A stretch of DNA of 64,000 nt from the NCBI RefSeq assembly GCF_002934605.1, contig NZ_PTJC01000005.1, positions 2,170,001-2,234,000 of the forward strand, in the 5' to 3' direction. Of the stretch, positions 33,979 through 61,070 are shown piece after piece (position 1 is the first letter of the stretch; each line of letters starts with the position of its first letter). This DNA comes from Neolewinella xylanilytica (GTDB lineage Bacteria; Bacteroidota; Bacteroidia; Chitinophagales; Saprospiraceae). The notes under the pieces are model-generated. The model did not search any database and was not told where the DNA came from. It saw nothing but the letters and a program-made list of their open reading frames with translations. A program made the position numbers and the translations under genes.

Positions 33979-33985
33979 GCATCCT

Positions 33986-35374: not shown

Positions 35375-35389
35375 CCTACATTTACGCGT

Positions 35390-36772: not shown

Positions 36773-36832
36773 CAAACATTGTGGGTTGGTAGGCCTTTCC
36801 ACTGGTGAATACCTGCCCCAGTTGACACCACC

Positions 36833-42120: not shown

Positions 42121-42597
42121 CTATCTCGTACCGGATTGCACGTGAAATACATTTGCCCGTTCGATGGATACGTAGTACTTCGCCTGCATCCCCCGGACGC
42201 GTTCCATGATCAGACTATACCCTTCGGCCGCTAATTCCTTCTGTAACCGGCGCTTCTGCTCCAGACTCAACCGCCGTACGGACACATCGATAGCGTGCCC
42301 CGCCACGTGATAGAATCCTTGCTGCTTGCGGGCCGTTTCGCGAATGGTCTGGTGCAGCCACGCTTCCCGACCTTTGTACAGGGTTTTTAGGTAATTGTCG
42401 TCGGTCAACTTCTTTTCATCAAGGTCAAAGGCCTGGACCGCCTGCCGGAGGGTTTTCGGATATTGTTTCGGACGAGCCTGGACGAATTGTGCCTGGATGG
42501 CGACCGAGCGAATGCCGGAATCCGTGATGAAGGCGCCGGGGTATTTATCTAGGATTCGCTGTAGCTTCTGCTTTTCCACAATTCGAAGTTTATCCAT
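42121..42597 (-). CDS. M15-like zinc peptidase (D,D/L,D-peptidase type), 158 residues
   Basis: A small protein whose second half looks like the M15 peptidoglycan peptidases. HVAGHAIDV (His97, Asp104) fits the H-x-x-G-x-A-x-D zinc motif, and the final NVFHVQ (His152) fits the last ligand block of the M15_3 type (FVHVD). The first half (QARPKQYPKTLRQAVQAFDLDE) is helical and of unknown kind. There is no signal peptide, so it would act on cell wall only if delivered, for example by lysis or by a secretion system. The nearby T6SS makes an effector role conceivable. The catalytic glutamate/aspartate between the ligands is not certain. Confidence 0.5.
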   Translation of the reverse strand: MDKLRIVEKQKLQRILDKYPGAFITDSGIRSVAIQAQFVQARPKQYPKTLRQAVQAFDLDEKKLTDDNYLKTLYKGREAWLHQTIRETARKQQGFYHVAGHAIDVSVRRLSLEQKRRLQKELAAEGYSLIMERVRGMQAKYYVSIERANVFHVQSGTR

Positions 42598-42737: not shown

Positions 42738-43897
42738 CTATTGCACCCCCTCCCGCCAGCTCACACATTCCACGTCCCCGACGCTCATGCTTTCCGCCCC
42801 GCCGTAGATGACTCGCTTACGAACAGACTTATTGACCAGGGTAGCCACCTTGTCCAAATTTGTCCGCAACCGATGCCGGTATGTGGAGGTCGCTTTGATT
42901 TCCGTAAGGATGATTTCAGTGCCGGTTGGTTCGAGGAGTTCGACTTCCAACTGATGATTATCGCGGTAGAAATACAGCGGGTGCTGGTTGCCGGCGTTGA
43001 AGCGACTTTTACGGAGATTAGCTACGATTAGGTTTTCGAAGAGCGCGCCGTACCCTTCGAAAGCTTGTACCTGCGCCCCGTCGCCCAGTTGCAAAAGATA
43101 GGCGGCCAGTCCGGTGTCGGTGAAGTATAATTTCGGGGACTTCACCAGTCGCTTGCCGAAGTTCTCGAAGTAGGGACCGACAGTGAAGATGACGTAGCTC
43201 CCCTCAAGGTAATGCAGCCAGGTTTTCACGGTGGGAACGGAAAGCTGTAAGCGCTTGGCGAAGGTGCTGTAGTTCAGCGTTTGGCCCACGGAAGCGGCAC
43301 AGAGAGCCATTAGCCGCCGGAAATCGCCCATGTTGGCGCTACGGACCAGCGGCGTGACGTCGCGCTCGAGGTAGGTACTTACGTAACTTGGATAGAAAAA
43401 GGCGGAGGGTAGGTCGGTCTGGTAAAGCTCGGGATAGAATCCTCTGACTATGGCATCGGGTGGAGTAGGCGGCAGCAAATCGGCTGCACTGAGTTCGGCA
43501 AAGTCGAGGGGCCGTAACCGAGCCACGCCGACCCGACCGGCCAGCGATTGCGTAATGCGCTCGCAGAGCAGGAAGTTTTGGGATCCGGACAAGACGTAGC
43601 GGCCGGGCTCCCGATCTTATCAACATGGGTCTGGAGGTAGGAGAAGAGGTCGGGTACCCGCTGGGCTTCGTCAAAGATTACTTGGCGGTCGTAGCGCCGG
43701 AGAAAGGAGAGGGGGTCCTCCTCGAAGGATTCCCGGTTGGGAATGTCTTCGAAGGAGACGTAGCGGTAATCTGGAAAGAGTTGCTTGAGCAAGGTGGTCT
43801 TGCCAGATTGGCGGGGACCGGTGAGGCTGATTACTGGGAAGAATCTTCTCAACTCTTCGAGGTGGCCGGATAAGCTGCGTGGGATGAAGGCCTTCAT
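42738..43897 (-). pseudogene. AAA_14/DUF4143 ATPase gene broken by a frameshift
   Basis: The gene reads in two frames. The first part (from the ATG at 43897) has the Walker A GPRQSGKTTLL and Walker B VIFDEAQR of the AAA_14 ATPases. The second part, continuing from about 43600 to 42738, has the expected GRYVLSGSQNF link and a DUF4143 C-terminal domain ending in a nuclease-like IILTEIKATSTYR. The break is near 43601-43612, where one base appears to be missing in AGCCCGGCCGC (- strand). Restoring a base would give VDKIGSPGRYVLSG, as expected for the family. It is therefore either a real pseudogene or a sequence error. These ATPases are of unknown role and often mobile. Confidence 0.8.
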
Positions 43898-44003
43898 TTC
43901 GTGTTTTGCACACAGATAACTTCAAATTTGACACCGTTAATTTTGATGTAGCAAAGAAAATCGTGCGATGTGGGGTCACTATAAGTTACCAACCCTTCTA
44001 GAG

Positions 44004-44023
44004 GCATTCGTTAAAACAAATGC
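44004..44023. terminator. Imperfect inverted repeat downstream of immunity candidate
   Basis: GCATTCGTT-AA-AACAAATGC has 9-base arms with one mismatch, about 48 bases past the stop of the immunity candidate (- strand). It may help terminate the adaptor-rhs-immunity transcript. There is no T-tract on the - strand. Confidence 0.3.
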
Positions 44024-44070
44024 TTATTTAATCTGCCATCAAGCCAGAATCTTAAAGAGTGAAGTAAAAA

Positions 44071-44454
44071 TTATTGGTTATTAGCTAAAATTTGTTTTAC
44101 GACTTCTTCATAGTTTGAAGGTAAAGACTCAAAATTATGTTCAATTATAAATTTATACATTTTCATAGTAGATTTGCTCGTTATGGTAATTTCTGTTGAC
44201 ATTTGGCGTGTCACCCATTGGTCAATTACGAAATATCCTTTAATTTGGACAAATGAGGATTCAAAATATGCGCTATCAATACCTTGTTTTTTGTCCATAT
44301 CATCAAACGTATATGCACATTGAATGATGATATAATTCTCAGGATCTACTCCATCGTCTGCATATGATATCAAATAATACTCGTCCTCTTCGATATCAGA
44401 AGCTTGAATATTATACGCTGTAAAAGAAAATTCTGGAGTTTTCACTAGTGACAT
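44071..44454 (-). CDS. Putative immunity protein to the Rhs deaminase toxin
   Basis: A 127-residue acidic protein with no recognised family (EDEYYLISYADDG, FVIDQWVTRQ, FIIEHNFESLPSNYEEVVKQIL). Its ATG overlaps the last ten bases of the rhs gene, so it is coupled to toxin translation, the standard place for an immunity gene. It has no signal peptide, as expected for a protein that neutralises a cytoplasmic toxin. Its DNA is strikingly AT-rich: in the 60 bases from 44101 only 14 are G or C, unlike the surrounding genome. The immunity role is inferred from position, size and composition, not from homology. Confidence 0.65.
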   Translation of the reverse strand: MSLVKTPEFSFTAYNIQASDIEEDEYYLISYADDGVDPENYIIIQCAYTFDDMDKKQGIDSAYFESSFVQIKGYFVIDQWVTRQMSTEITITSKSTMKMYKFIIEHNFESLPSNYEEVVKQILANNQ

Positions 44455-47400
44455 TTAGATTTTATTTTCTTTCCATCCTCGTAAGTCATACGCCGAGGAA
44501 TACCATCCTCAACCCACAGATACTCGACTGTTCTTCCCCCAGAAGATGCTCTCCTCATAGCTCCTTGGCATGAGTTGCAAGGTGGGTACTGTCCAATAAT
44601 CTCCATTCGGTGACCAGGCTCAAGCGGAATATTTCTGACAGCCCTGTTTTCTGTATGTGTAGCTAATGTACTTTGAGGAAATCCTAGGGCCTTTTCTTCA
44701 GGGGTCATATTTCCACTAACTAAATCCTCTTGGTGTAGAATATTATCACTTTGATCAAAAACTGTCACTGAAGCGGAATGCTGACCTTTTCCACTTCCGA
44801 AAGACAATCCAAAAACATCCGTCCAGGAATTAGTATCAGGTACGTAGGCAATTAAATTGAATGTATTGGAGGCCAAACGTATAGGATCCTGACTAACATA
44901 CCCCCCCACCTCAGGATCAAAATACCGAAACCGATTATAGTACAAGCCCGTCTCCACGTCCTCGTACTGCCCGGGGTAGCGGAAGGGGCATTCCCCGCGC
45001 CAGCCATCTAAAGTACGGGTATCACCGTAAATCGACAACTCCAGTTCCCAGCTTTTCGTGCCTGCCTGCGAGTACATACTCAGGGGCGTGCCGAGGTGAT
45101 CGGTTACGATGCCGTAATCCTGGGTAGGGGTGAGCTTGGCCAGGGGGGAAAAGCTCTCCGGTTCGAAGAGCCAGGTGGTGAGGTCGCCGGCGACGGCCGT
45201 GATGGTTTCGGCGGGCTCGTCGACTGCAACCGGCTTAGCGTGACCGTTCCCATTGGCGGAGGGGGGCGCCTGACCGGGGGAAGTGCGAAGTTGCTCGTCG
45301 CGCCGGCGGATGGTAATCCGTTTACCACGGTCTTCCCCGCCGGGGTCTTGCTGCCGCGTAGCAATGGGCGTAGGCGGTGCCTCTTCCCGCCACTCGTGCA
45401 GCATCACGTTGCCGTCCCACACCCAGCGGGTAAGGTGCCGGCCGTAGCGTTTCGCAATCCGGCGGCCCAGGGCGTCGTAGGTGAAGGTGACCACGCGGCC
45501 ATCCGGGCGCACTACCCGCGCCAGCATCCCCGCCGCGTTCCATTCGTAAGCCCAGCGCTCGCCGTTGCTTCGGGTCTTGCTGATCAAATTCCCTTCCGGA
45601 TCGTATCGGAAAGTCGTGCCGTCCGCCTCCAGCAGCTGCCCCGCCGGACCGTATTTCCGATCCCCACGATTACCGGTCTTAAATAGATTTCCCACCGCGT
45701 CCGGCATCCGCAGCTCCCGACTGCCGTCCGGGTAGGTGGCCGCCGCCAGGTTCCCGAAGACGTCGTGCTCGAACTCGAAGCGACCTTTCGCGGAGTCCAC
45801 GATCGACTGCAGCCGGTCGTTCACTCCCCACTGATAGGTTCTGCTGCGCTCCCGCTCCCCGCCCACCGTAGTGATCTGCTTGGCCGGTCGCCCCAGCCGG
45901 TCGCGCTGCCACCTGCTCCGTACGCCGCCCGGTAAGCTCCGCTCCAGTTCCAGACCCAGCATGTCCCGCTCGAATTGCACCGCCCAGGGGTCGGCCTTGC
46001 CCGTCTGACTGATCACTTCCTCCACGTCCCCCATCTTGTTCCTTCGGATGGCTACGTCCGCGCCCAGACTGGACGTCAATCCTACCCGATTACCCAGCTT
46101 GTCGTACTTAGAAGTCACTACGAAGCCGCCCTGCCGCTCGGTGAGTACCCGCCCCACACGATCCCGCTCGAAGCTTACCCGGATCGCCCCGTTGACCGCC
46201 GCCGTCAGTTCCCCGTCGGCCCGGTAGGTGTAGCGTTCCGCGCTGCCGTCCCAGTGGTTGACCTCCGTTACGCGGCCTACCCGGTCGTAGGCGTAGTCCG
46301 TTTCCCGGTCGCCGGGCCGCCGCACGCGCACTACCTGTCCGGCCGCGTCCCGCACGTAGGTACGCGTCAGCCGGTCGAATCCGGATTCCCTGACCACCCG
46401 CCCGCAGTCGTCCAGCCCGAAGGTGTAGACCGAACCATGCTCGTTCTCAATGGCCACCAGCTCTTCCTCCGTATTGTACCGGAAGGCCACCCGCGTCCCC
46501 GCCTCGATGCGCGCCGCCAGCCGGTTCATGCCGACGTACTCGAAGGCCACGTCGTACTGCCGGTCTTTAGCACGCACGATGTTTTCCTCGCCGTCGTAGT
46601 CGAGCACCCGTACGTTGCCGTCCGGTTCCCGCACCTTCAGGGTATTACCGAGCAAATTCAGCTTGCGGTTCCGTACGTTGCCCCGGGCGTCCGTGGCCGC
46701 CGTTACCCGCCCCAGGCGATCGTAGCGCCATTCGCTGCTGGCACCGTCGGCCGTGCTCAGCCGTGTTAGATTGTATTCTTTGTCGTAGGCGAGCACGGTC
46801 CGATTACCCGCCGGATCGACGATCGCGGTCAGGTTGGGGCCGGAATAGCCGTAGGCGGTGGTGGCCCCGGTCGGATCCGTCCGGGCGACCAGGCGATGCA
46901 GCTCGTCGTACACCCAGCTCCAGCTGCCCCCGACCTGGTCCTTCGCGGCCGCCAGCAGGTGGTCCTTTCGCGTTAGCTTGATCCGGCTGCCATCGGGGTA
47001 GGTAATCTCGCTCCGGTGGCCCAGCGCGTCGTAGACGTAGCTCGTCACCCGGCCGAGTTCGTCCACCTCCCGCAGCAGTTCGCAGGCCTCGCCGTACAGG
47101 CTCAGCCGCTCGTGGCCCAGCGGGTCCACGGTCTTCCACACCAGTCCGTCTTCGTTATAGTGGTACAGCGTCACTTGCCCGAGGCTATTCACCACCCGCG
47201 TCACCCTGTTTTCGGTGTCGTAGGTGACCGTATTGTCGTGGATGCCGCCGTCGCCCCAGGTATGCACGCAGCACGCCTCCTGCCCCTTCCCCGTATATTC
47301 GAAGTAGAAGGAGAGCTCGTTGCGGTTCGTCTCGCGGGTCAGCAGGTGATCCCGGTAGGTGTACCGGAAGCTTCCGCCCACCGCGTCGGTGCTTTCCACC

Positions 47401-48635
47401 AGGTCGCCGGCCGCATCGTAACGGTAGCGGACCAGTGTCACCTTAGCGCCGTTGTCACCCGGTTGGGGGTGGGGGGCTTCTATGGCCGTAATTCTTCCCC
47501 GGGCATCCGTCAGTACGGTAAGACGCCGACCGGCGCTGTCAACGATCTCCCGCAAGCAGCCCCGACCGTCGTAGGCAAACGTAATTTTCGGGGCGCCGGG
47601 GCGCAGGATACAATCCAACTTCGCGGAAGCATTGACCGTCAGGTCGTCGATCCGGAAGTAGTGCGCGGTGTAGTGCTCGTCGGTGACGATGAAGTGGGTG
47701 TCGTCGCGCGTAAACCGCAATTTTTCCTGTCGCAAGTACATCTCCTCGCCGGGGAAGAAATAGTCCACAAAGGCGTTGCGCCCGTCGGGCAGCCGCAGTT
47801 CCAGCGTTTCCTCCTCTCGGCTTAACTCCAAGTCGTAGTTATGGTGCCAGCCGTGGCCCAGCGCGCCCGCGTGCCCGGAAGTCGAATACCAGATCCGTTC
47901 CCATACCAGCGGGATCGGCCCCGGTAACTCGAAGTCCACGCGATCGGTAAACACCTTCCCGGTCCCGACGTCCACCGGGTGCCCGATGACGCTACAGATA
48001 TTCCGGTGGATCTTATTGCGCAGGTTCTCCGGCAGGTGCCGGGTCACCAGGCTCGCCGCGTCGTGAATTTTGGCGCACAGTTTTTTATACGCCCCGGAGT
48101 TCTTCACGAATCTATTGAAGAACTTCCCCCCGGCCGCCATGCCCAGCTTCATCCCGATGGCCATCATCGAAATGGTCGGCGGTCCCCCCACCATCACCAG
48201 TTGACCGCCCGGAATGGCGATCAGCACGGAGGTGGGCAATTTCAACCCGGCTTTCGCCTTCCCCTTCGGCCGTGGCGGACTCGGCATGCCGATACAGGAG
48301 CAGCTCAACACCGGCGAGGACATCCGGCTAAAGGGCTCGTCCTCCACCACTACGGTAGCACTGCCCATGAAGATCTCCCCCTCGCTGTCTACCGGCTTGA
48401 TAAAGGTGCCGCCCAGCGGTATGTGGGGTGGAACTCCCTTCGCTTCGTTGCCCGCCTGCGCCCGGGGCATGCCGTTGACCCAGGTGGAAGCGCCGATGAA
48501 GGGCAGGAACTCCATCGGGTCCATGACCATACCGATGAAGGGGTGGGGGAACGGGATGGGCGGCACCGGTCCCGGTGGCTGTACGATGTGGATGTCCACG
48601 CCCATCACCATGTCCATCATCTTGGCGGCGATCAT
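44445..48635 (-). CDS. PAAR-like/Rhs T6SS effector with C-terminal deaminase-type toxin
   Basis: A 1396-residue polymorphic toxin. Residues 1-190 are a PAAR-like tip domain (hydrophobic, with VVVEDEPFSRMSSPVLSCSCIG). Residues about 200-1260 form the Rhs/YD cage with many YDxxGRVT-type repeats. The core ends in the typical FRYFDPEVGGYVSQDP and DVFGL (Asp1273), a variant of the self-cleavage DPxGL motif. The 119-residue tail (1278-1396) carries HTE (His1327, Glu1329) and PPCNSC (Cys1353, Cys1356), the zinc and catalytic residues of the cytidine-deaminase fold. It resembles, from memory, the Pput_2613-like toxin deaminases, which would edit nucleic acids or nucleotides in the target cell. The ATG overlaps the upstream TPR gene by four bases. 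Confidence 0.88.
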   Translation of the reverse strand: MIAAKMMDMVMGVDIHIVQPPGPVPPIPFPHPFIGMVMDPMEFLPFIGASTWVNGMPRAQAGNEAKGVPPHIPLGGTFIKPVDSEGEIFMGSATVVVEDEPFSRMSSPVLSCSCIGMPSPPRPKGKAKAGLKLPTSVLIAIPGGQLVMVGGPPTISMMAIGMKLGMAAGGKFFNRFVKNSGAYKKLCAKIHDAASLVTRHLPENLRNKIHRNICSVIGHPVDVGTGKVFTDRVDFELPGPIPLVWERIWYSTSGHAGALGHGWHHNYDLELSREEETLELRLPDGRNAFVDYFFPGEEMYLRQEKLRFTRDDTHFIVTDEHYTAHYFRIDDLTVNASAKLDCILRPGAPKITFAYDGRGCLREIVDSAGRRLTVLTDARGRITAIEAPHPQPGDNGAKVTLVRYRYDAAGDLVESTDAVGGSFRYTYRDHLLTRETNRNELSFYFEYTGKGQEACCVHTWGDGGIHDNTVTYDTENRVTRVVNSLGQVTLYHYNEDGLVWKTVDPLGHERLSLYGEACELLREVDELGRVTSYVYDALGHRSEITYPDGSRIKLTRKDHLLAAAKDQVGGSWSWVYDELHRLVARTDPTGATTAYGYSGPNLTAIVDPAGNRTVLAYDKEYNLTRLSTADGASSEWRYDRLGRVTAATDARGNVRNRKLNLLGNTLKVREPDGNVRVLDYDGEENIVRAKDRQYDVAFEYVGMNRLAARIEAGTRVAFRYNTEEELVAIENEHGSVYTFGLDDCGRVVRESGFDRLTRTYVRDAAGQVVRVRRPGDRETDYAYDRVGRVTEVNHWDGSAERYTYRADGELTAAVNGAIRVSFERDRVGRVLTERQGGFVVTSKYDKLGNRVGLTSSLGADVAIRRNKMGDVEEVISQTGKADPWAVQFERDMLGLELERSLPGGVRSRWQRDRLGRPAKQITTVGGERERSRTYQWGVNDRLQSIVDSAKGRFEFEHDVFGNLAAATYPDGSRELRMPDAVGNLFKTGNRGDRKYGPAGQLLEADGTTFRYDPEGNLISKTRSNGERWAYEWNAAGMLARVVRPDGRVVTFTYDALGRRIAKRYGRHLTRWVWDGNVMLHEWREEAPPTPIATRQQDPGGEDRGKRITIRRRDEQLRTSPGQAPPSANGNGHAKPVAVDEPAETITAVAGDLTTWLFEPESFSPLAKLTPTQDYGIVTDHLGTPLSMYSQAGTKSWELELSIYGDTRTLDGWRGECPFRYPGQYEDVETGLYYNRFRYFDPEVGGYVSQDPIRLASNTFNLIAYVPDTNSWTDVFGLSFGSGKGQHSASVTVFDQSDNILHQEDLVSGNMTPEEKALGFPQSTLATHTENRAVRNIPLEPGHRMEIIGQYPPCNSCQGAMRRASSGGRTVEYLWVEDGIPRRMTYEDGKKIKSKCH

Positions 48636-49948
48636 GGCGTAGCGGGGGTTTGGGCGCGTTCGATCAACTCCTCCCAGTCGGCACCCACCAGCCGTTCCAT
48701 CCGGTGGCGGATGTCGCGGATGGCATCGTGCCGGTTCATCCGCTCGACGCCTTCGAGCAGGGCCTGGCCGACGTACGGCAGGGTGGATCCACGAAGCAGG
48801 TCGGGGGAGATGGTTTCGGCTGTTTGCAGGGCATCGAGGTTACATTGCCAGGCTTGTTCCTGCGCTCCGCCGCGATCAAAACACCAGGCCGCCAGCCGGT
48901 AAGCCTCCATGCGCTGGAAGGCTTCGTCTTCCCGGTCCGCCCGGGCGGCGGCTTCCTCGTAAGTTGCCGCGGCGGCGGGGTATTCCTTGGCGTGCAGTAA
49001 GCCCGCCGCCTCGAAGTTCAGGCACTGGAGCAGGACGGCCCGACCCGCGGGATTGCCTACGTCGATAGCCAGTTGCGCGGCCTCGCGGGCCTGCCGGAAG
49101 AGGGAAACGGCTTCTTTACGCCGGTCTGCGTGGGGAAGCAGGTGGGCCCCCTGGGCGGCCAGAACGGTGGCGACCAGGTGCTCCCAGCCGATCTGTTGCT
49201 GGGCGAGTTGCCGGGCCGCTTCCCCCTGCTCCCGCATGCTGTCGAAGGCGCCCCGACTTCCGGATTGACTCATTTCCAAGAACAGGGTGCGAAAGCGGAC
49301 CGCCGGGTCTTCGGGGTCCCCCTCGGCCGCCAGTTCCCGGGCGAGTTGGTCCATATGCAGCTCCGGTCGCAGGGTGCGGACATGCCAATCTTCCCGGCCG
49401 GTGAAGCGGCGTCCGAGCGGCCCGTCTTCGGTGTCGCAGACCATGACGTCTAGGCCCGCAGGGAGCCCGGAGACCAGCAGCTGCTGCAGGGTAGTAGCCA
49501 GGGAGTCGGAGGGGCGACCTTGCGCCGGGTTGAGGAAGACGACGGTTCGTCCCCGGTGATGGGTGAGCGTGCCGGCAAACGAATGAATGCGGCGGAGAAA
49601 GCCGGTCAGTCCGCCGGAGCGCAGGGGTGTCAGATACGGCTCGAAGGGCACTCCCTGCCCGAGCAGGGTATCGCGCGCGCTTTCCAGTTGGAGGCGAAAT
49701 TCCGCGTCCAGGTTGGCGAGGTAGTCCGACGTATCGGGATTACCCTGAACGAAGGTCAGGAAGAGGTCGCGGGTCACCGCCCCGGCGGAATCTTCCGTCA
49801 GGACGAAGGCCTCGATCATGGGTTTCTCCTCCGGCCCGGCGATCCAGAGCATCAGCCTTCCGGCTTCCGTGGTAACCGACTCGGTATACAGGCGCTGTAC
49901 CTGCCGTAAGCGGCGGACGGCGGCGTTGCTGTGCGGGTTGGTGGACAA
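48632..49948 (-). CDS. TPR-containing protein, candidate Rhs loading adaptor
   Basis: A 438-residue cytoplasmic protein that I cannot assign to a known adaptor family (it is not a DUF1795 Eag chaperone). The N-terminal half has a mixed alpha/beta look (GRLMLWIAGPEEKPMIEAFVL, RGRTVVFLNPAQG). The second half (about 235-420) consists of helical TPR-like repeats (EAVSLFRQAREAAQLAIDVG, AAAATYEEAAARADREDEA). It lies directly upstream of rhs and overlaps it by four bases, so it is made together with the effector. This suggests that it stabilises or loads the PAAR/Rhs protein onto VgrG. The start is a TTG ending at 49948, because an in-frame stop lies just upstream and no ATG is near. Confidence 0.65.
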   Translation of the reverse strand: MSTNPHSNAAVRRLRQVQRLYTESVTTEAGRLMLWIAGPEEKPMIEAFVLTEDSAGAVTRDLFLTFVQGNPDTSDYLANLDAEFRLQLESARDTLLGQGVPFEPYLTPLRSGGLTGFLRRIHSFAGTLTHHRGRTVVFLNPAQGRPSDSLATTLQQLLVSGLPAGLDVMVCDTEDGPLGRRFTGREDWHVRTLRPELHMDQLARELAAEGDPEDPAVRFRTLFLEMSQSGSRGAFDSMREQGEAARQLAQQQIGWEHLVATVLAAQGAHLLPHADRRKEAVSLFRQAREAAQLAIDVGNPAGRAVLLQCLNFEAAGLLHAKEYPAAAATYEEAAARADREDEAFQRMEAYRLAAWCFDRGGAQEQAWQCNLDALQTAETISPDLLRGSTLPYVGQALLEGVERMNRHDAIRDIRHRMERLVGADWEELIERAQTPATP

Positions 49949-50134: not shown

Positions 50135-52627
50135 TTGCTCACTCTCGGGAATTACACCACCGATCTGCGCGAGGCTAACCGCATTGCCGCCGCCATTGCC
50201 CGGGAATACCGGGGCAGTCAGTACGGCCCGCCGCACCTGCTGAAGGCGGTCCTCCACGACGATGTCGGCCTGTCGAGTATGCTGCGCACCATGGACGTCG
50301 ATCTCAACCGCCTGCGGGAATGGGCGGAGGTGCGCCTGCGTCGGTATCCGAAAAGCGCCCGCCCGGCGACCGAGCCCACCCCCGACGACGCGGTCGAGCG
50401 GGTACTGAGCACGGCGGATATCGTTCGCCTCAAGCTTTCCCTGGACCGGGTCGACAGCGCCTGCGTCCTGGCTGCCCTGTGCAAACCCGGCGTCGGGTTT
50501 ACCGCCGAGGAACTCAAGTCGTTCCCCCTGACCGAGCAGCAACTGCTGGCCAATTACGTGGCCGAGGTAGCCAACCAGCCGGTAGAGAAGTCGGCCCGCA
50601 ACGGCGTCGCTAGCGGCAACGGCGTGGCGGCCGGCGGCAAGGGCAAGCAGCTGGAGCGATTCTGTACCGACAAGACCGCCGCCGCCCGGGCGGGCAAGAT
50701 CGATCCCATTATCGGCCGGAACCGGGAGATTCGCAAGATCGCCGAGATACTGGGGCGGCGCACCAAGCCGAACGCCATCATCGTCGGGGAGCCCGGGGTA
50801 GGTAAAACCGCCCTGGTCGAAGGCTTCGCCCGACTTATCGTAGCGGGCGAAGTACCGGAGCGCCTCCGGGAGGCCACGCTTTGGGAGCTGGACACGGGTT
50901 CCCTGATCGCGGGCGCGGCCTATAAGGGGGAGATCGAAGAACGGCTCAAGTCCATCCTCGCCGAAATCAAGGCGCGTCCGGGAACCATCCTCTTCATTGA
51001 TGAAATCCACATCCTCCTCGACCCCCAGGGCGGGGCGGGGGGCGCGGCCAACTTACTGAAGCCGGAACTGGCCCGCGGCGAACTGACCGTTATCGGGGCC
51101 ACCACCCACGCCGAGTACCGGAAATACATCGAAAAGGACGATGCGTTCAAGCGCCGCTTTGACACCATCGAGGTGGAGGAGCCCGATGAGGAGAAGGCCG
51201 TCCGGATGCTCCAGGCCCTGGCCCCCGCTTACGGGGAGCACCACCAGCTTACCCTCACCCCCGGCGCGCTGCGCGAGGCCGTCCACCTGGCCACCCGCTA
51301 CCTCAAGGACCGGCAGCTTCCCGACGCCGCCATCGACCTGATCGATCGGACCGCCGCGGCCGTACGTATGATGGTCGAGACAAGCGGTGATGAGGTAGCC
51401 CGTTACCGCCAGCGACTCACCGAGCTGACCGAAACCGGAACTGAACAGGATCCCGATCTGTACCTGGCCGAACTCAAGTGGTTCGAGAGTGAATTGCGCG
51501 ATGCCGTTTCGCCGATCCTGCTGGGTAAGGTGCCAGACCTGCTGGACGTAGGGGGGATGGAGCGTTCGGAAGACCTGATTGCCTACCTCCACCGCTTGCT
51601 GGACTCCCTTGACGGGCACGCCGAGTCGGACAAAGACAGCATCCTCAGCGGGGACGTGGCCGCCCTGGTCGCCTACGCCAAGGGCATCCCGATCGGCAAA
51701 ATCCAGTCGGACGAAAAACAGAAACTCGACACCATGGCCCAGCGCCTGGGCGAGCGGGTGATCGGGCAGGACCAGGCCATCCAGTCGGTGGTCAGCGCCG
51801 TGAAGGTGAGCCGGGCCGGAATCGCCGACGCCGGTCGCCCCGTCGGGAGTTTCTTTTTCCTGGGACCCACCGGTACCGGAAAGACGGAACTGGCCAAAGC
51901 CCTGGCCGATTTCCTATTCAACGACGAATCGGCCCTGATCCGCTTCGACATGTCGGAGTACACCCAGCAGCACGCGGCCGATACGCTGACCGGCGCACCT
52001 CCGGGTTACGTCGGCTACGAGGAGGGCGGCATACTGGTGAACCGTATCCGCCGGCAGCCCTATTCGGTGGTGCTGTTCGATGAGATCGAAAAGGCCCACC
52101 CGGAGGTCTTCAAGGTCTTCCTGCAGGTGCTGGACGACGGCAAGCTGACGGACAAGCAGGGGAAGGTGGGGGACTTCACCAACGCCATCATCCTGTTCAC
52201 CTCCAATATCGGCCACGAGTACATCGTGGACAGCTTCGAGCGCGGCGACATCCCGACCTCGGCCCAGTTGACCGAGCACATGAGCCGGCACTTCAAGGAC
52301 GAATTCCTGGGCCGGCTGACGGAGATCATCCCCTTCGGCCCGATCACGGAAAAGAACATTGTAAAAATTTTCCGCATCCAGGCCCGCAAACTCGGTAACA
52401 GTTTGCGAATGAAGGGAATAGACCTGCAAATGACGCCGGAAGCGGAACGGCACTACGCCATGCTGGGCTTCTCGCCCCGCTTCGGCGCCCGGCCGCTGCG
52501 CCGCGTCATCCTGAACGATCTACAGAAGCCCATCTCGCGGCTCATCATCTCCGGCGAGCTCGCCGACGGGCAGCAGTTGCGCATCGACCTCGACGAAGCG
52601 GGGGAGGCCCGATTCAACATTCAATAA
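50135..52627 (+). CDS. tssH: T6SS sheath-recycling AAA+ ATPase TssH/ClpV
   Basis: Hexameric Clp/Hsp100 ATPase that disassembles the contracted TssB/TssC sheath. Residues 1-140 are the N domain (LTLGNYTTDLREANRIAAAIA), used for sheath recognition. The first AAA domain has Walker A GEPGVGKT (about residue 218) and Walker B TILFIDEIH. The second has GPTGTGKTELAKALA (about 580) and LFDEIEKAHPEVF, with arginine-finger region FSPRFGARPLRR. At 830 residues it is typical. The start is TTG: an in-frame TAA lies at 50120 and the conserved N terminus begins immediately after the TTG. It heads the T6SS operon. Confidence 0.95.
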   Translation: MLTLGNYTTDLREANRIAAAIAREYRGSQYGPPHLLKAVLHDDVGLSSMLRTMDVDLNRLREWAEVRLRRYPKSARPATEPTPDDAVERVLSTADIVRLKLSLDRVDSACVLAALCKPGVGFTAEELKSFPLTEQQLLANYVAEVANQPVEKSARNGVASGNGVAAGGKGKQLERFCTDKTAAARAGKIDPIIGRNREIRKIAEILGRRTKPNAIIVGEPGVGKTALVEGFARLIVAGEVPERLREATLWELDTGSLIAGAAYKGEIEERLKSILAEIKARPGTILFIDEIHILLDPQGGAGGAANLLKPELARGELTVIGATTHAEYRKYIEKDDAFKRRFDTIEVEEPDEEKAVRMLQALAPAYGEHHQLTLTPGALREAVHLATRYLKDRQLPDAAIDLIDRTAAAVRMMVETSGDEVARYRQRLTELTETGTEQDPDLYLAELKWFESELRDAVSPILLGKVPDLLDVGGMERSEDLIAYLHRLLDSLDGHAESDKDSILSGDVAALVAYAKGIPIGKIQSDEKQKLDTMAQRLGERVIGQDQAIQSVVSAVKVSRAGIADAGRPVGSFFFLGPTGTGKTELAKALADFLFNDESALIRFDMSEYTQQHAADTLTGAPPGYVGYEEGGILVNRIRRQPYSVVLFDEIEKAHPEVFKVFLQVLDDGKLTDKQGKVGDFTNAIILFTSNIGHEYIVDSFERGDIPTSAQLTEHMSRHFKDEFLGRLTEIIPFGPITEKNIVKIFRIQARKLGNSLRMKGIDLQMTPEAERHYAMLGFSPRFGARPLRRVILNDLQKPISRLIISGELADGQQLRIDLDEAGEARFNIQ

Positions 52628-52636
52628 ACCACACAC

Positions 52637-53107
52637 ATGGCAGACTTCACCTCCAACCAAGACTTACGTAAGAACGGCTTCATCTACGAAACCGTCGACG
52701 CCGCCAACGAAGCGATGGCCGACATTCCCAAGAACCGGACCATCCTCACCGCCGACCTGACCGACAAGCCGGCCACCCGCCCGGAGATGACCTACGAGCT
52801 GGAAACGATCGAGGACGTCTTCGAGCACTTCCAGCCGAGCGTAAAGATGGAATTCAACGACGCGGAAGGGGCCTCCATCAACGAGGAACTTCACTTCACC
52901 AATCTCGGCGACTTCGGGGAAAAGGCCCTGCTCCGGCAGAGCGAATTTCTTGGGAAGACCAGCCAGCAGCGCGCGAACTATTCCACCTTCGCCACCCGCC
53001 TGCAGAACAACAAGGTGTTGCAACGCGTCCTGAGCGACCCCGAAAAGAAGGAAGCCTACCTCACCGTACTGCGCTCCATGTTGCAGGAACTGGAAGACGA
53101 AGCATAA
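52637..53107 (+). CDS. tssB: T6SS sheath small subunit TssB
   Basis: Cytoplasmic small subunit of the contractile sheath, which with TssC surrounds the Hcp tube. A 156-residue acidic protein with the family blocks TYELETIEDVFEHFQPSVKMEF and INEELHFTNLGDFG. It matches the subtype iii form. It lies 9 bases after clpV and 36 before tssC. Confidence 0.9.
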   Translation: MADFTSNQDLRKNGFIYETVDAANEAMADIPKNRTILTADLTDKPATRPEMTYELETIEDVFEHFQPSVKMEFNDAEGASINEELHFTNLGDFGEKALLRQSEFLGKTSQQRANYSTFATRLQNNKVLQRVLSDPEKKEAYLTVLRSMLQELEDEA

Positions 53108-53143
53108 ACCGAGTACTTAACACTGAAGCACAATACAAGCACC

Positions 53144-54526
53144 ATGGCACAGGAAGAATTACAGAGCGCGGCAACCGGCGCCCCGGCCGAAAAGACGGCT
53201 ACCCGTACCGACGCGGTACCCGCCGAGGCGGTGGCCCACGCGGTCGACTCACTGGAGGAATACGGCGGCTTCGATCTGGTCGCCGGCAGCGTCGACGGCG
53301 CCGAAAACATGGAGCCCGATTCGATCCTGAAGGACATCTTCCTTGAAGAGGAAAGCAACAAACGGGAACGGCAGCAGCTCCGTCAACGCCTCGCGGACTG
53401 GATCGCCCTGATCACGGAAGTGGAGAACGTCGGCGAAATGATCGAGCAGAGCAACGCCCGCCACGAGGCGGCGGACGCGCTGCTCAAGCAGAACCTGAAA
53501 AAGACGCTCGGCCGGATCGCGAAGCTGGAAACGAATTACCGGTCGGTGGCCAACTTTTACCGCAACGCCGCGGGCGATAAGCCGGTCAAGAACCTCACCC
53601 TCGTCAATGCTCCGCTGGAGAAACTGAACGACCTGGATAACCCCATTTTCCTGAAGGCGATCGGTGACGAACTCCAGCAGAAATTTGACCGGCTCGACCT
53701 GATGAACAGCTACGGTCTGGTGGTCGTACCCGGTTTCCTCGGTTCCAAAGCCGTCATCGACGAATGGGCGCGGACGGCCCAGGAGGCGAAAGCGATGCTA
53801 CTGACCGACTTCCGCGACCTGGCGAATCCCGATCAGGTCATGAAACTCTGGGAAGCCGGTAAATACACTGGCGCCGACGAGCATAAGGGCAACGTGATGA
53901 TGACCTGTAACTGGCTGGTGGGCCGGCCGGCCAACGAGGATGTCGGCGAATCCGACCCGCTGTATATCCCGCCCTCCACCGCCCTTGCCGGAAGGATGTA
54001 CGCCAACAACATCGCCCAGGTATCCGCCGGTAAGAAATTCGGCGTGCTGCGCGGGGTGGAAGGTACCCGTTTCGTCACCCGCGCCAACGAGCTTTCGGAC
54101 CTCGGGGAAATGGGCCTCGTGCCTATGGCCTACGAATACGGACAGGTGCAGGCCTTCAGTCAGCGCACCCTCTTCAACGGCGATAACCTCGGTATGCAGA
54201 CGTACTCGGTGGTGCGCACCTTCGACTGGCTCACCAAGAGCCTGATGGACTACCTCAACCGAATGCTGTTCGTCAACATCAGCACCAACGCGGAGATGAA
54301 TATTCACCGCGAAGTAGCCAAATTCTTCTTCAACTGCCAGAAGAACGGCATCCTGGAAAAATACGGGAAGGTGGAAATCAAACGGGATCCGAATCAAAAG
54401 GACCGGGTGTGGGTAAAGGTCCACGCCACCCCCTTCTTTCCCGCCCGCAATTTCGTGATCAACCTGGAAGGCAAGAGCGGCGACGACCCGAATTCCCCGC
54501 CCGACTGGGATAGCAACGTAGCCTGA
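53144..54526 (+). CDS. tssC: T6SS sheath large subunit TssC
   Basis: Large sheath subunit, 460 residues. After an acidic N terminus (about 1-60) come the family segments PDSILKDIFLEEE, KNLTLVNAPLEKLNDLDNP, FNGDNLGMQTYSVVRTFDWLTKSLMDYLN-like (shortened: VVRTFDWLTKSL) and a C-terminal VHATPFFPARNFVI. It interlocks with TssB, forms the extended sheath and is recognised by ClpV after contraction. Lies between tssB and tssD, which are all co-oriented. Confidence 0.93.
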   Translation: MAQEELQSAATGAPAEKTATRTDAVPAEAVAHAVDSLEEYGGFDLVAGSVDGAENMEPDSILKDIFLEEESNKRERQQLRQRLADWIALITEVENVGEMIEQSNARHEAADALLKQNLKKTLGRIAKLETNYRSVANFYRNAAGDKPVKNLTLVNAPLEKLNDLDNPIFLKAIGDELQQKFDRLDLMNSYGLVVVPGFLGSKAVIDEWARTAQEAKAMLLTDFRDLANPDQVMKLWEAGKYTGADEHKGNVMMTCNWLVGRPANEDVGESDPLYIPPSTALAGRMYANNIAQVSAGKKFGVLRGVEGTRFVTRANELSDLGEMGLVPMAYEYGQVQAFSQRTLFNGDNLGMQTYSVVRTFDWLTKSLMDYLNRMLFVNISTNAEMNIHREVAKFFFNCQKNGILEKYGKVEIKRDPNQKDRVWVKVHATPFFPARNFVINLEGKSGDDPNSPPDWDSNVA

Positions 54527-54549
54527 GCAGGCAAGACTATAACCGGTTT

Positions 54550-54576
54550 CGTCCCGCCCCGGGAGGGTAGGGGACG
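54550..54576. terminator. Weak hairpin between tssC and hcp
   Basis: CGTCCC ... GGGACG forms a 6-bp stem around a 15-base GC-rich loop in the 83-base gap between tssC and tssD. It might attenuate or shield the hcp transcript end; no T-tract follows, so the call is weak. Confidence 0.3.
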
Positions 54577-54609
54577 GCCGATTCAATTCACCCTTTAATT
54601 CATTACACC

Positions 54610-55008
54610 ATGTTTGAAGCAAAGTTAAAGTTAGACGGCGGCGAGCCGGTGGAAGTGCTGCAGTGCAGCTACCAGATGGATCGCGAGACGGATAAGTCCG
54701 GCATGCCGGCGACCGGCGTCCACGGCGGTAAGATCAGTCTCACCATTAAGTCATCTTCCGATATCACCTTATTCGACTGGATGATCAATGCCTTCGCCCA
54801 GAAGAACGGCGAGATCGAGTTCTACAAGCGCAACGACCCCACGCCCGCAAAGGTGCTGTCGTTCGAGAACGCCTACATCGTCGAGCACGGCGAAACCTTC
54901 AACGTCCTGAACGGGGAGGTAGACCAGCCGATGGTCGAGCACTTCACCGTCTCCGCCGAGACCATGAAGATGCAGGAGAGCGAGCTCAAGAAGACCTGGG
55001 TTAGCTAA
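54610..55008 (+). CDS. tssD: T6SS inner-tube protein TssD (Hcp)
   Basis: Hexameric tube subunit that is expelled with the spike, 132 residues. The beta-sandwich blocks FEAKLKLDGGEPVEVLQCSYQMDRETDKSGMP-like (shortened: GEPVEVLQCSYQMDRETD), GGKISLTIKS and NGEIEFYKRND match the Bacteroidota Hcp type. It is flanked by hairpins on both sides: the downstream one (55017-55059) looks like a real intrinsic terminator, which would give high hcp mRNA relative to vgrG. Confidence 0.92.
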   Translation: MFEAKLKLDGGEPVEVLQCSYQMDRETDKSGMPATGVHGGKISLTIKSSSDITLFDWMINAFAQKNGEIEFYKRNDPTPAKVLSFENAYIVEHGETFNVLNGEVDQPMVEHFTVSAETMKMQESELKKTWVS

Positions 55009-55016
55009 ATCTCATT

Positions 55017-55059
55017 CCGGAGGCCCGGCATTCGCTGATGGCCTCCGGTCTCCTCTTTT
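55017..55059 (+). terminator. Intrinsic terminator or attenuator between hcp and vgrG
   Basis: CCGGAGGCC (55017-55025) and GGCCTCCGG (55040-55048) form a perfect 9-bp stem with a 14-base loop, followed by TCTCCTCTTTT. It starts nine bases after the hcp stop. A partial terminator here would raise the ratio of Hcp to VgrG and the baseplate proteins. Confidence 0.7.
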
Positions 55060-55080
55060 CCATTACCCAATCATTTTCTC

Positions 55081-56895
55081 ATGGCGGGCAAGGCCGTACC
55101 GGATATCGTAATCGACGGAACCCCCCTGGGGCCGATTTCGGTATTGACCCTGGAACAGCCCTGGAACGATCACCATTCGTTTTCGATCGTTTGTCCTTAC
55201 CGGGAACGGTCGGGCGCCCTGATGGAACTGGGAAGAACGTACGTCGGTAAGCCGATCACCATCCAGCTCCGCGCCGGTATTCGCGCCGGTAACGGTCAGC
55301 TCACTTTCAAGGGCATCATCACCAACGTCAAACTCAGCAAGCAGGCCAGCTCGGTCATTCAACTCGTGTTACAGGGCTTCAGTCCGACCCGCCTACTAGA
55401 CGACGGACCGCACAACCGCTCCTTTTCCGAGCAATCGCTGGCGGATGTTATCCAGACGGTAACCGGTGATTTTCCCGATCTCGCGACGAAGGTAGACGTG
55501 CGGTATACCGAACCCTTACCGTACGTTACCCAGTACCGCGAGACAGCCTACCGTTTTCTCCGCCGGCTCACCGCCACCCACGGGGAATGGTTTTACTACG
55601 ACGGCGAAACCGCCCGCTTCGGCGCCCCCGCCGAGGGCGAGGAATCGGAATTGCTTTTCGGAAAGGATCTCAGCGGGATGGAAGTAACGGCCGACGTCGT
55701 CCCGGCCAATTTCAAGCTCTTGGGCTACGATTACGTAGGTGACCAGCACTTCGATGTTTCGGCCGAGCGCGCCAAGGTGCGCGAACTGGACGATTTCAGC
55801 CAACTGGTCTTCGACACCTCGGTCGGGCTTTTCCAGCATGCGCCGGTCTTCGCCGAACCCTTCACCGCTCCGGATAAAGTGCACCTGGAGCATTTTGCCG
55901 AGCGACGGCGGGGCGGCCAATCCGCCAACCTCATTAATCTGTTCGCGGAAAGCTCCCGCCTGGATCTGCAGGTCGGTCAGGTCGTCAACGTCCGCACGGT
56001 ACCCGGCAACTTCAACGGAAATGCGTCCGAAAGTGCCGACGATTACGGCAGCTTCCGCCTGTTGCGCATCACCCACCACTGCGACGGGATGGGCAACTAC
56101 CACAATACCTTTCAGGGGATACCGGCCAACCTGGAGGTGCCGCCCATCAGCGACCACAACATTGCTCCGCCCGCCGCGGAGACCCAACCCGCCGAGGTCA
56201 CCGACAACCAGGATCCGGAGCAACTGGGTCGCGTGCGGGTCACCTTCGCCTGGCAAAAGGAATCCGGCGAGCAAACGCCGTGGTTACGGGTCGCCGCCGC
56301 GGGTGCCGGCGGGGGGCACGGCGCGTACTTCGTGCCCGAGACCGGCGATCAGGTCATGGTAGGTTTCGAATACAACAACCCCGACCGGCCGGTCGTACTC
56401 GGCAGCGTCTACCACGGCAGCGTCAAACCGGCCAACGCCGCCGACCCCAGCAACAATTCCAAGATCATCCGTACCCGCAGCGGAAACCAGGTCATTCTCT
56501 CCGACGCGGACGGTGAGGAAAGCATTACGATCGAGAACGGGATGAATTTCATACGACTCAGTCTCCAGGGCGATACCTCCATCGACATCATGACGGCGGG
56601 AGATCTCAACCTCACCGGAAAAAATATCACGATCACCGCGGAGGAAAACATCACGGTCTCCGCCGGCCAGGCCGCCGACCTAAGTGCCGGACAGGGATTC
56701 TCCGTGTCCGCAGGCCAGGACCTCAGCCTCACGACGAACGCGAACCTGGACGCCACCGGTCAGAACATCAACCTCAGTGCACAGATGAGCGTAGCGGCAT
56801 CCGGTGGGTTGAGCGCCGAGTTCAGCAGTGCGAATACGACCCTTAGTGGGGACGCCACGGTCACCGTTACCGCCCCCATGGTCAAACTGAACTAA
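55081..56895 (+). CDS. tssI: T6SS spike protein TssI (VgrG)
   Basis: Trimeric spike at the tip of the Hcp tube, 604 residues. N-terminal gp27-like domains (about 1-340; YRETAYRFLRRLTATHGEWFYYDGE-type block, here THGEWFYYDGE). An OB-fold gp5 domain follows (about 375-450; PEQLGRVRVTFAWQ, FVPETGDQVMVGFE, VVLGSVYHGS), then a C-terminal beta-prism (about 490-600) of repeated LSAGQ/SAGQDLS-type strands. It probably binds the PAAR-like domain of the Rhs effector encoded at 44445-48635. No extra toxin domain is attached. Confidence 0.94.
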   Translation: MAGKAVPDIVIDGTPLGPISVLTLEQPWNDHHSFSIVCPYRERSGALMELGRTYVGKPITIQLRAGIRAGNGQLTFKGIITNVKLSKQASSVIQLVLQGFSPTRLLDDGPHNRSFSEQSLADVIQTVTGDFPDLATKVDVRYTEPLPYVTQYRETAYRFLRRLTATHGEWFYYDGETARFGAPAEGEESELLFGKDLSGMEVTADVVPANFKLLGYDYVGDQHFDVSAERAKVRELDDFSQLVFDTSVGLFQHAPVFAEPFTAPDKVHLEHFAERRRGGQSANLINLFAESSRLDLQVGQVVNVRTVPGNFNGNASESADDYGSFRLLRITHHCDGMGNYHNTFQGIPANLEVPPISDHNIAPPAAETQPAEVTDNQDPEQLGRVRVTFAWQKESGEQTPWLRVAAAGAGGGHGAYFVPETGDQVMVGFEYNNPDRPVVLGSVYHGSVKPANAADPSNNSKIIRTRSGNQVILSDADGEESITIENGMNFIRLSLQGDTSIDIMTAGDLNLTGKNITITAEENITVSAGQAADLSAGQGFSVSAGQDLSLTTNANLDATGQNINLSAQMSVAASGGLSAEFSSANTTLSGDATVTVTAPMVKLN

Positions 56896-56900
56896 GCCCC

Positions 56901-57362
56901 ATGAAGAACTACGCTCTCCCGACCGATTTTACCGCTTTGATGCGCCCCGGTGGCCGCGCACCCACCGTCGATCTCCACGAATCGGTACGGCAGCACATTT
57001 TACTGATGCTGATCTCTCACTTCGGCAGCCTCCGGGCCGATCCCGCCTTCGGTTGTGCTTTCTGGGAGTACGATTTCGAGTCGGGAGCCAAGCTGGAAAA
57101 TCGTCGCCACCAGCTGGAGCAGAGCATCCGTACGATGATCACGGAGCGGGAGCCCCGCCTGGATCCGGCCACCCTGAAGGTAAATTTCCGGGTATTCAAC
57201 AGTCCGCTCCCGTCCTACCGGGGCCGGCGTATGCTTTCCCTTAAAAAACGCATCGAGATGCAGGTTTCCGGGAGGCTGTTACAGACCAATACGGCCTTCT
57301 CGCCCCCGCCCTTCCAGCTGTACTTCAGTCCGGTGGCCATCGAGCAAACAAACGATCGGTGA
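56901..57362 (+). CDS. tssE: T6SS baseplate protein TssE (gp25-like)
   Basis: Small baseplate wedge protein of the phage gp25 family, 153 residues, needed to start sheath assembly. Family features are the VRQHILLMLISHFGSLRADPAFGCAFWEYDF region (shortened: GSLRADPAFG) and the EPRL segment (MITEREPRLDP). It lies five bases after vgrG, and its stop shares a base with the tssF start. Confidence 0.88.
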   Translation: MKNYALPTDFTALMRPGGRAPTVDLHESVRQHILLMLISHFGSLRADPAFGCAFWEYDFESGAKLENRRHQLEQSIRTMITEREPRLDPATLKVNFRVFNSPLPSYRGRRMLSLKKRIEMQVSGRLLQTNTAFSPPPFQLYFSPVAIEQTNDR

Positions 57363-59218: not shown

Positions 59219-60159
59219 AAGCGGCCCGGCTGAACGAAATCGAACAGGTCCTGAGCCGGCACCCGGCCCGAATGGAATTCCTGTTGGCCGAGCTGGTAAA
59301 CGCCGACATGCTTTCGCCCGAGGAACTGAGTATCCGGGCCACGAGCACCTTCGCGCGGAATTACCGACAAGACATCGCCGGCACCAAGGTGAAGGAGGAG
59401 CCGTCGGGTGACCTGCTGGAGGTCCGTACCCACCGGGAGGGAATGTACGACCAGCTTCCCTATCACCTTTTTCACCGGCCCGAACCGTACGGCCCGACGC
59501 AAAAATTGAAAAGCCGCCTGGCCGAGAGTGAAGCCGCCCGGGCACGGGAAGCAGCCGCCCGGGCCTTCTTTTTCCCCTTCGAACAGGTCCTTAGTGCGAC
59601 AGCCATCAAGGTGGCCCTACAGGAACGGAATCTTACGGACGCCTTCACCAGCCCCCTTTACCGGAACCTGCTCCTAAAGCTTTGGCCGGGCTGCGCGGCC
59701 GTTCATCCCGACCGTTTGCCCCTGCTGGGCTATGTCCTGCCACTGGCACACCGAATCAGTGGCGATCTGGAACTGATGGCGCTCTGCTATCGCAGCCTGC
59801 TACTGGCTCCCGTTCAGTTGGCTTACCGCCGGTCAGCCGGCCCCTCCAAACCGGGCGAACCGGCCCCTGCCGGAACCATCCTTGGCCTGGATTTCACGCT
59901 CGACGGCCGGCCGGAGGAAGAACTTCCCGGCCTGGTCGTGACCGTCGGTCCGCTGAGCCGGCAACGCAGCGAGGAATTTCTGCCCGCCGGCCAGGGAACG
60001 GCCATGCTCGAACTTCTCCACGAATGCCTGGTGCCCTACGAAGTGGATGTCCGGCTGCAAATCACCCTCCAACCCGCCGAGGAATCCTTCCGCCTGGCCG
60101 ACGATCGGATACCGGCCTCGCGCCTGGGTCTGACGGCCACCTTAACGCCTTCCGTATGA
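59215..60159 (+). CDS. tssG: T6SS baseplate protein TssG
   Basis: Baseplate wedge partner of TssF, 314 residues. It starts with an ATG that overlaps the tssF stop (ATGA), and its own stop overlaps the next start, so tssE-F-G-N are translationally coupled. The gene is identified mainly by position, length and the helical N-terminal region followed by a beta-rich middle (LPLLGYVLPLAHRISGDLE). The sequence is divergent from proteobacterial TssG. Confidence 0.82.
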   Translation: MKAARLNEIEQVLSRHPARMEFLLAELVNADMLSPEELSIRATSTFARNYRQDIAGTKVKEEPSGDLLEVRTHREGMYDQLPYHLFHRPEPYGPTQKLKSRLAESEAARAREAAARAFFFPFEQVLSATAIKVALQERNLTDAFTSPLYRNLLLKLWPGCAAVHPDRLPLLGYVLPLAHRISGDLELMALCYRSLLLAPVQLAYRRSAGPSKPGEPAPAGTILGLDFTLDGRPEEELPGLVVTVGPLSRQRSEEFLPAGQGTAMLELLHECLVPYEVDVRLQITLQPAEESFRLADDRIPASRLGLTATLTPSV

Positions 60160-61067: not shown

Positions 61068-61070
61068 ACT

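What the first reader, a model, noticed from the sequence alone, without database searches (positions are those of the whole stretch)
44071..49948. Effector cassette: TPR adaptor, PAAR/Rhs with deaminase toxin and overlapping immunity gene
Three - strand genes overlap one another (4 and 10 bases) and diverge from the T6SS structural operon. The Rhs tail has HTE and PCxxC of the deaminase fold, the partner gene is a classic immunity candidate with no recognised family, and the upstream TPR gene looks like a dedicated loader. A deaminase toxin in a subtype iii T6SS of a Saprospiria-type organism would be a new effector-immunity pair.
Basis: partly seen in the sequence, partly recalled or inferred. 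Interest (0 to 1): 0.8.

Follow-up and report, generated by a model that had tools for sequence, protein, structure and literature searches.

The report
T6SS Rhs deaminase toxin with immunity
A Bacteroidota bacterium carries a probably needle-delivered Rhs protein whose tail closely resembles a known DNA-mutating deaminase toxin, with the matching immunity gene beside it; the pair is a new member of a known kind, and the conserved but unnamed loader gene next to it is the least explored part.

Summary
Three minus-strand genes overlap by 4 and 10 bases and diverge from a T6SS operon. The Rhs tail (residues 1278-1392) is a Pput_2613/BaDTF3 deaminase (PF14427, E 1.4e-39). Its model matches the dsDNA deaminase DddB (9K3E; Foldseek E 3.5e-12), with HTE and PCxxC intact. 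The partner is not family-less: it is a divergent Imm10 (E 5.7e-5, below the curated cut-off), and Imm10 was published in 2012 as partner of Pput_2613 deaminases. Of 27 related loci, 23 gave an adjacent ORF; 19 of these match Imm10 at E<=0.001 and 3 more weakly. So this is a new member of a known kind.

Added here: two sister species carry the same Rhs body (86% and 58% identical) with different tails and downstream genes; the boundary lies at YVSQDPI and the swapped piece is AT-rich. The TPR gene belongs to an unnamed family found directly before a PAAR-like/Rhs gene in 8 of 9 genomes. In one sister it diverges together with the Rhs N-terminus while the Rhs body stays conserved, as expected of a dedicated adaptor.

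The parts
44071..44454 (-). Immunity gene, 127 aa, divergent Imm10 (PF15588)
   Evidence: Imm10 E 5.7e-5, 23.7 bits against a cut-off of 28.6; AF2 model pLDDT 93.9, mostly beta; overlaps the toxin gene by 10 bases
44445..44804 (-). Toxin tail, residues 1278-1396 of the Rhs protein plus stop: Pput_2613/BaDTF3 deaminase
   Evidence: PF14427 E 1.4e-39; Foldseek 9k3e_B E 3.5e-12; H1327, E1329, C1353, C1356 kept
44805..44888 (-). End of the Rhs shell, residues 1250-1277: self-cleavage motif DPIR-X19-DVFG and the exchange boundary
   Evidence: motif definition from PMC10684867 passages
44805..47984 (-). Rhs shell, residues 218-1277 (DUF6531 plug and RHS repeats)
   Evidence: DUF6531 E 4.4e-24 at 218-287, RHS_repeat E 6.8e-71
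47985..48635 (-). N-terminal PAAR-like domain, residues 1-217 (label inferred)
   Evidence: 34-58% identical to five N-termini that follow TPR homologues; no PAAR match
48632..49948 (-). TPR protein, candidate adaptor
   Evidence: weak TPR matches; homologues directly before a PAAR-like gene in 8 of 9 genomes
43832..44880 (.). Stretch without counterpart in sister species G868: holds the immunity gene and nearly all of the tail
   Evidence: blastn; GC 31-43% against 63% in the Rhs body
50135..62309 (+). T6SS operon that probably delivers the effector: TssH, B, C, D, I, E, F, G, N, K
   Evidence: Pfam matches, several weak and TssB just under its cut-off

Best explanation
The cassette is a polymorphic Rhs effector-immunity unit of a Bacteroidota T6SS. 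The TPR protein binds the N-terminal PAAR-like domain of the Rhs protein and brings it to the VgrG spike (inferred). The Rhs shell encloses the tail, and self-cleavage at the DPIR..DVFG motif frees it (inferred from known Rhs proteins). After injection into a neighbouring bacterium the tail deaminates cytosine in DNA to uracil, poisoning or mutating the target (family, fold and active-site residues shown here; activity inferred from the BaDTF3 relative DddB). The Imm10-like protein, from the overlapping gene, binds the toxin and protects the producer and its kin (inferred). Tail and immunity gene were exchanged as one piece at the conserved YVSQDPI boundary: sister species have other tails and other downstream genes on the same Rhs body (shown by comparison; direction unknown).
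For: PF14427 E 1.4e-39; DddB chain 9k3e_B by sequence E 7.5e-29 and by fold E 3.5e-12; catalytic residues invariant in 26 of 26 tails; Imm10 match, the only Imm10 match in 395 genomes of the phylum sample; adjacent Imm10-like ORF in related loci, 19 of 23 at E<=0.001 and 3 more at E 0.0028-0.041; profile of 10 partners hits the immunity chains of BaDTF3/DddB at E 0.0028 and 0.0044; tail exchange and GC shift; Imm10-Pput_2613 pairing in PMC3482391 (passages); mutagenic BaDTF3 in PMC7901873 (passages).
Against: No activity was measured. The Imm10 score is below the curated cut-off. Foldseek of the immunity model gave no match at E<=0.001 and does not list 9k3e_C in the 50 rows shown, although entry 9k3e is in that library. 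The first half of the cleavage motif has R for G. PAAR was not detected. TssO and TssR were not found in this genus.
Confidence: 0.85

Rival explanations
1. The tail is a deaminase, but its main target is RNA or a free nucleotide rather than DNA.
For: The deaminase superfamily includes RNA and nucleotide enzymes, and such chains appear among the weaker fold matches.
Against: The closest solved relative by far is a dsDNA deaminase at 50% identity, and the tested BaDTF3 toxin caused C-to-T changes in DNA (PMC7901873 passages).
Confidence: 0.12
2. The pair is a decaying relic: the effector is no longer processed or delivered.
For: The first motif half is DPIR instead of DPXG and the spacing is 19; the ATPase gene just downstream is split over two frames.
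Against: All three frames are open and all catalytic residues are kept. DPIR also occurs in the Flavobacterium pectinovorum homologue with the same tail type, and Tse5 has X19 spacing (PMC10684867 passages).
Confidence: 0.07
3. The TPR protein is not an adaptor but a second immunity or regulatory factor.
For: TPR proteins are versatile, and no adaptor family matches it.
Against: It stays with PAAR-like N-termini whatever the tail, even with a 309-residue partner without Rhs repeats in G840, and in G867 it diverges with the N-terminus, not with the Rhs body.
Confidence: 0.2
4. The 127-residue protein is not a true Imm10 but an unrelated small beta protein that came with the tail.
For: Sub-threshold Pfam score; no fold match to 9k3e_C among the rows shown.
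Against: Only Imm10 match in its genome and in 395 genomes of the phylum sample, beside the only PF14427 tail of this genome; 37% identity over 68 residues to the F. pectinovorum partner, which passes the Imm10 cut-off.
Confidence: 0.08

Closest known systems
DddB / BaDTF3 (Pput_2613-like deaminase toxin, PF14427; PDB 9K3E, 9PW0-9PW2)
   Same: Family, predicted fold, HTE and PCxxC; about 50% identity in the fold alignment
   Different: Carried by a Bacteroidota Rhs protein next to a T6SS operon; activity untested; partner very divergent in sequence
Imm10 immunity family (PF15588)
   Same: Profile match over positions 10-86 of 105; beside a Pput_2613 tail, as published
   Different: Below the curated cut-off; 13-26% identical to the 23 partners aligned
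Deaminase-tipped PAAR-Rhs and Hcp effectors of Bacteroidales T6SS (PMC4714493, passages)
   Same: T6SS of Bacteroidota with Rhs effectors of variable tail, some with predicted deaminase tails
   Different: Those tails are YwqJ and DYW deaminases; here it is Pput_2613
Known T6SS effector adaptors (Eag, Tap/DUF4123, DUF2169; names recalled)
   Same: Encoded next to the effector and thought to load it on the spike (recalled)
   Different: The TPR protein matched only two TPR families in Pfam at E<=1

Membership tests
Pput_2613-like / BaDTF3 deaminase toxin | Match to PF14427 above the curated cut-off | tested here: met
   135 bits against 25, E 1.4e-39
Pput_2613-like / BaDTF3 deaminase toxin | Deaminase fold with HxE and PCxxC | tested here: met
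   Residues 1327-1329 and 1352-1356; Foldseek to 9k3e_B E 3.5e-12 on a model of pLDDT 77.4
Pput_2613-like / BaDTF3 deaminase toxin | Cytosine deamination of DNA | not testable with these tools
   Needs expression or purified protein
Imm10 | PF15588 match above the curated cut-off | tested here: not met
   23.7 bits against 28.6, E 5.7e-5. Six of the ten partners scanned singly that match at E<=0.001 or weakly are under it too or near it: only L037 and L045 of those ten pass
Imm10 | Gene directly downstream of a Pput_2613 toxin | tested here: met
   Overlap of 10 bases; same arrangement in related loci and in a Streptomyces plasmid annotated as Imm10 family
Imm10 | Neutralises the toxin | not testable with these tools
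   Needs experiment
Polymorphic Rhs toxin | Rhs repeats, conserved core end, exchangeable tail with its own small downstream gene | tested here: met
Polymorphic Rhs toxin | DPXGX18DPXG self-cleavage motif | tested here: inconclusive
   DPIR-X19-DVFG: both aspartates, not the first glycine
PAAR spike-tip proteins | Match to a PAAR family | tested here: not met
   a fold test was not run
T6SS subtype iii | Bacteroidota-type TssC, TssD and TssN | tested here: met
   PF17541 E 6.8e-155, PF17642 E 8.6e-37, PF17555 E 7.3e-11
T6SS subtype iii | TssO and TssR | tested here: not met
   None in this genome or the two sisters; TssO in 6 and TssR in 2 of the 12 T6SS genomes searched. Divergent copies may be missed
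Known T6SS effector adaptors (Eag, Tap, DUF2169; recalled) | Match to their Pfam families | tested here: not met
   Only TPR_12 (E 0.012) and TPR_WDR35 (E 0.14) at E<=1

The most novel reading that the evidence does not exclude
The TPR protein founds an undescribed class of T6SS adaptor in Bacteroidota that is specific for the PAAR-like N-terminus of its partner. Adaptor plus Rhs N-terminus form one exchangeable module and tail plus immunity gene a second, so that a single Rhs locus is reshuffled from both ends.
Probability: 0.5. Interest if true: 0.5.

Novelty: new member of a known kind. Interest (0 to 1): 0.36.

Why it matters
It places a DddB-like, probably DNA-mutating, deaminase toxin beside a Bacteroidota T6SS and links a divergent immunity protein to Imm10. 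DddB has been applied as a DNA footprinting enzyme (PMC12698189 passages), so a homologue of about 50% identity with its own inhibitor has some practical value. The sister-species comparison gives a clean natural example of toxin-immunity exchange. The unnamed TPR gene is a testable candidate for how Bacteroidota load Rhs effectors.

Tried and rejected
Rejected: that the partner has no family (and the neighbour survey). Rejected: that it is one of many copies; it has a single match in its own genome and none at E<=0.001 in the 394 other genomes of the class sample.

Led nowhere: Foldseek of the immunity model against the PDB gave 0 matches at E<=0.001. phmmer of the window immunity protein against the PDB gave nothing up to E 5, and phmmer of the Hydromonas partner gave only ATP-citrate synthase chains at E 0.76-1.8. 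The 24-row profile gave the two BaDTF3 immunity chains only at E 0.19 and 0.30; I then used a 10-row profile without the 11 actinobacterial rows and without L033, L034 and L036. That choice was made. A PAAR match was sought and not found. Two plasmid records of 72,556 held a related tail, each over 50-60% of the query. The cited paper on the DddB footprinting method is not held. A search for papers naming PDB entries 9K3E, 9PW0 or 9PW1 found one unrelated paper, and a search for the pair in Bacteroidetes T6SS found only PMC3482391.

Limits of the neighbour count: of 27 loci, 4 gave no adjacent ORF for the set. L043 ends shortly after the tail, L058 holds only part of a tail, and for L046 and L047 no look-alike ORF was seen by eye; their downstream ORFs were not scanned. 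11 of the 23 ORFs come from closely related Actinomycetota (L048-L057 and L059), so they are not independent. L036 is a chimeric ORF without an Imm10 match at E<=1. L058 and L059 were left out of the tail alignment A6 (25 of 27 loci used, plus the window).
Full report
Observation. The three minus-strand genes exist as described, with overlaps of 10 and 4 bases, and the T6SS operon starts at 50135 on the other strand.

Toxin tail. Residues 1278-1392 match Pfam PF14427 (Pput_2613-like deaminase) at E 1.4e-39, positions 1-116 of 118. By sequence the best PDB chains are 9k3e_B, 9pw0_A, 9pw2_A and 9pw1_A, E 7.5e-29 to 7.6e-27, the last two named BaDTF3. An AF2 model from 26 tails (pLDDT 77.4, ends and one middle stretch poor) matched 9k3e_B, 'DddB(BadTF3) dsDNA deaminase', at E 3.5e-12, TM 0.76/0.85, 50% identity; this was the only match at E<=0.001. 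DddA, APOBEC3 and tRNA deaminase chains followed at E 0.005 and above, mixed with some unrelated folds lower down. H1327, T1328, E1329, P1352, C1353 and C1356 are invariant in 26 of 26 tails. In PMC7901873 (passages) a Pput_2613-like toxin of Taylorella, renamed BaDTF3, was toxic to E. coli and caused C-to-T changes, most efficiently after T. PMC13304343 (passages) calls this enzyme DddB.

Immunity gene. The partner matches Imm10 (PF15588) at E 5.7e-5, 23.7 bits, below the curated 28.6. Four lines of evidence still make it Imm10 in my view. First, PMC3482391 (passages) lists Imm10 with Pput_2613 deaminases. Second, in the phylum sample PF14427 rings in 2 of 395 genomes and Imm10 in 1 of 395, namely this gene; the second PF14427 genome has its tail at a contig end, so its partner cannot be seen. 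Third, a scan of genome contigs with three tails gave 27 loci, and for 23 of them I took the adjacent downstream ORF. With the window's own gene, 20 of 24 match Imm10 at E<=0.001. Of the four others, L033, L042 and L044 have Imm10 as best family at E 0.019, 0.0028 and 0.041, and L036, a chimeric ORF, has none. Fourth, a profile of 10 diverse partners has as its two best PDB hits 9pw2_B (E 0.0028) and 9k3e_C, 'The immunity protein of DddB' (E 0.0044); with the 24-row profile the same two led at only E 0.19 and 0.30. Against this, Foldseek of the confident immunity model (pLDDT 93.9) gave no match at E<=0.001 and did not list 9k3e_C among the 50 rows shown of 863, although entry 9k3e is in that library.

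Polymorphism. Of 21 genomes of the same genus, 3 carry this TssC: the window's own, G868 (97% identity) and G867 (85%). The locus of G868 aligns with the window over 11 kb at 85% DNA identity, beginning at window 44881, and on the other side again at 43760-43831 and 42744-43712; the 1.05 kb of 43832-44880 has no counterpart. The Rhs proteins are 86.5% (G868) and 58% (G867) identical over the aligned part, and the identity collapses after YVSQDPI, about residue 1250. The proteins of G868 and G867 show no toxin family of Pfam at E<=0.5 in their tails, and their downstream genes (286 and 138 aa, GC 33% and 35%) match none. The window's tail and immunity gene have GC 43% and 31% (GC3 32% and 26%) against 63% (GC3 80%) in the Rhs body. 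This is the classical picture of tail-immunity exchange.

Self-cleavage. Rhs proteins are described as ending in DPXGX18DPXG, Tse5 in DPXGX19DPXG (PMC10684867 passages). The window has DPIR-X19-DVFG: both aspartates, but neither the first glycine nor the second proline. DPIR also occurs in the F. pectinovorum homologue. Cleavage is therefore plausible but not shown.

The TPR gene. It has weak TPR matches (PDB profile). The window protein matches nothing in NCBIfam (E<=1) or PADLOC (E<=0.01); of seven homologues scanned in NCBIfam one has a weak histidine-kinase match. In the order sample, 7 of 149 genomes have a homologue and 14 of 149 have TssC; 6 have both (Fisher p 1.5e-6; the two searches appear to use the same draw). 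In 8 of 9 genomes with a homologue (these 7 plus the two sisters) the next gene starts with the same PAAR-like N-terminus; in G825 two short ORFs lie between it and an ORF that I did not test. In G840 the partner is a 309-residue protein without a Rhs repeat match. Between the window and G867 the adaptor is 23% identical and the Rhs N-terminus 49%, within the range seen between the window and other families of the order (18-27% and 39-63%), while Rhs 640-1245 is 77% against 44-52% for the three other full-length proteins, and TssC is 85%. So adaptor and N-terminus seem to travel together. This rests on one sister pair and on identities, not on a recombination test.

Delivery system. Pfam matches at 50135-62309 fit TssH, B, C, D, I, E, F, G, N and K. 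Several are weak, and TssB is just under its cut-off. TssC, TssD and TssN match the Bacteroidota-type families. TssO and TssR were not found in the 3 genomes of this genus, though TssO rings in 6 (one under the cut-off) and TssR in 2 of the 12 T6SS genomes searched. PMC10781749 (start of abstract in a listing) reports five genes of a unique membrane complex in Bacteroidota T6SSs. A 'same phylum' genome has a contig of the same length and the same tail as a Chlorobium MAG record, which puts the window in Bacteroidota in the GTDB sense (inference). The class was not tested.

Verdict. The pair type has been in print since 2012 (PMC3482391), and deaminase tails in Bacteroidales T6SS effectors were predicted in 2016 (PMC4714493 passages). 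I found no paper on this very pair in the searches. It is a new member of a known kind; the adaptor family and the possible two-ended exchange are the part worth following.

Noticed in passing
42738-43897 (-): AAA_14/DUF4143 ATPase gene just downstream of the immunity gene is split over two overlapping frames here; the sister G868 has it in a single open frame.
   Followed up: partly
40736-41419 (+), 41549-42055 (-), 42121-42597 (-): Small genes without a Pfam match at E<=0.1; the first has a HESAH stretch that recalls zinc peptidases (recalled). The same neighbourhood in the sisters holds other ORFs, one with HELTH, one with SHGCIR: perhaps further variable effectors.
   Followed up: no
L066 1745-7816 (starts at window 63744 and runs past the window's end): Directly after the T6SS genes and an M23 peptidase lies a row of ThiF/E1-like, ubiquitin-like (YukD), E2-like (UQ_con) and JAB genes, a complete-looking ubiquitin-like conjugation set.
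   Followed up: no
50135-62309: The T6SS of this genus lacks detectable TssO and TssR and scores low for several core families, so it may be a divergent branch of the Bacteroidota T6SS.
   Followed up: partly
L033 4228-4794 (Aquimarina): Downstream of the deaminase pair lies a separate piece of a Rhs core end with another tail, like a displaced tail.
   Followed up: no
L036 3370-3825 (Zobellia): The ORF after the deaminase tail starts like the Aquimarina partner and then turns into unrelated sequence.
   Followed up: no
23203-37891: TonB-dependent receptor, GH88, DUF4861, pectinesterase, GH43, ThuA and oxidoreductase genes, suggesting use of pectin-like polysaccharides.
   Followed up: no
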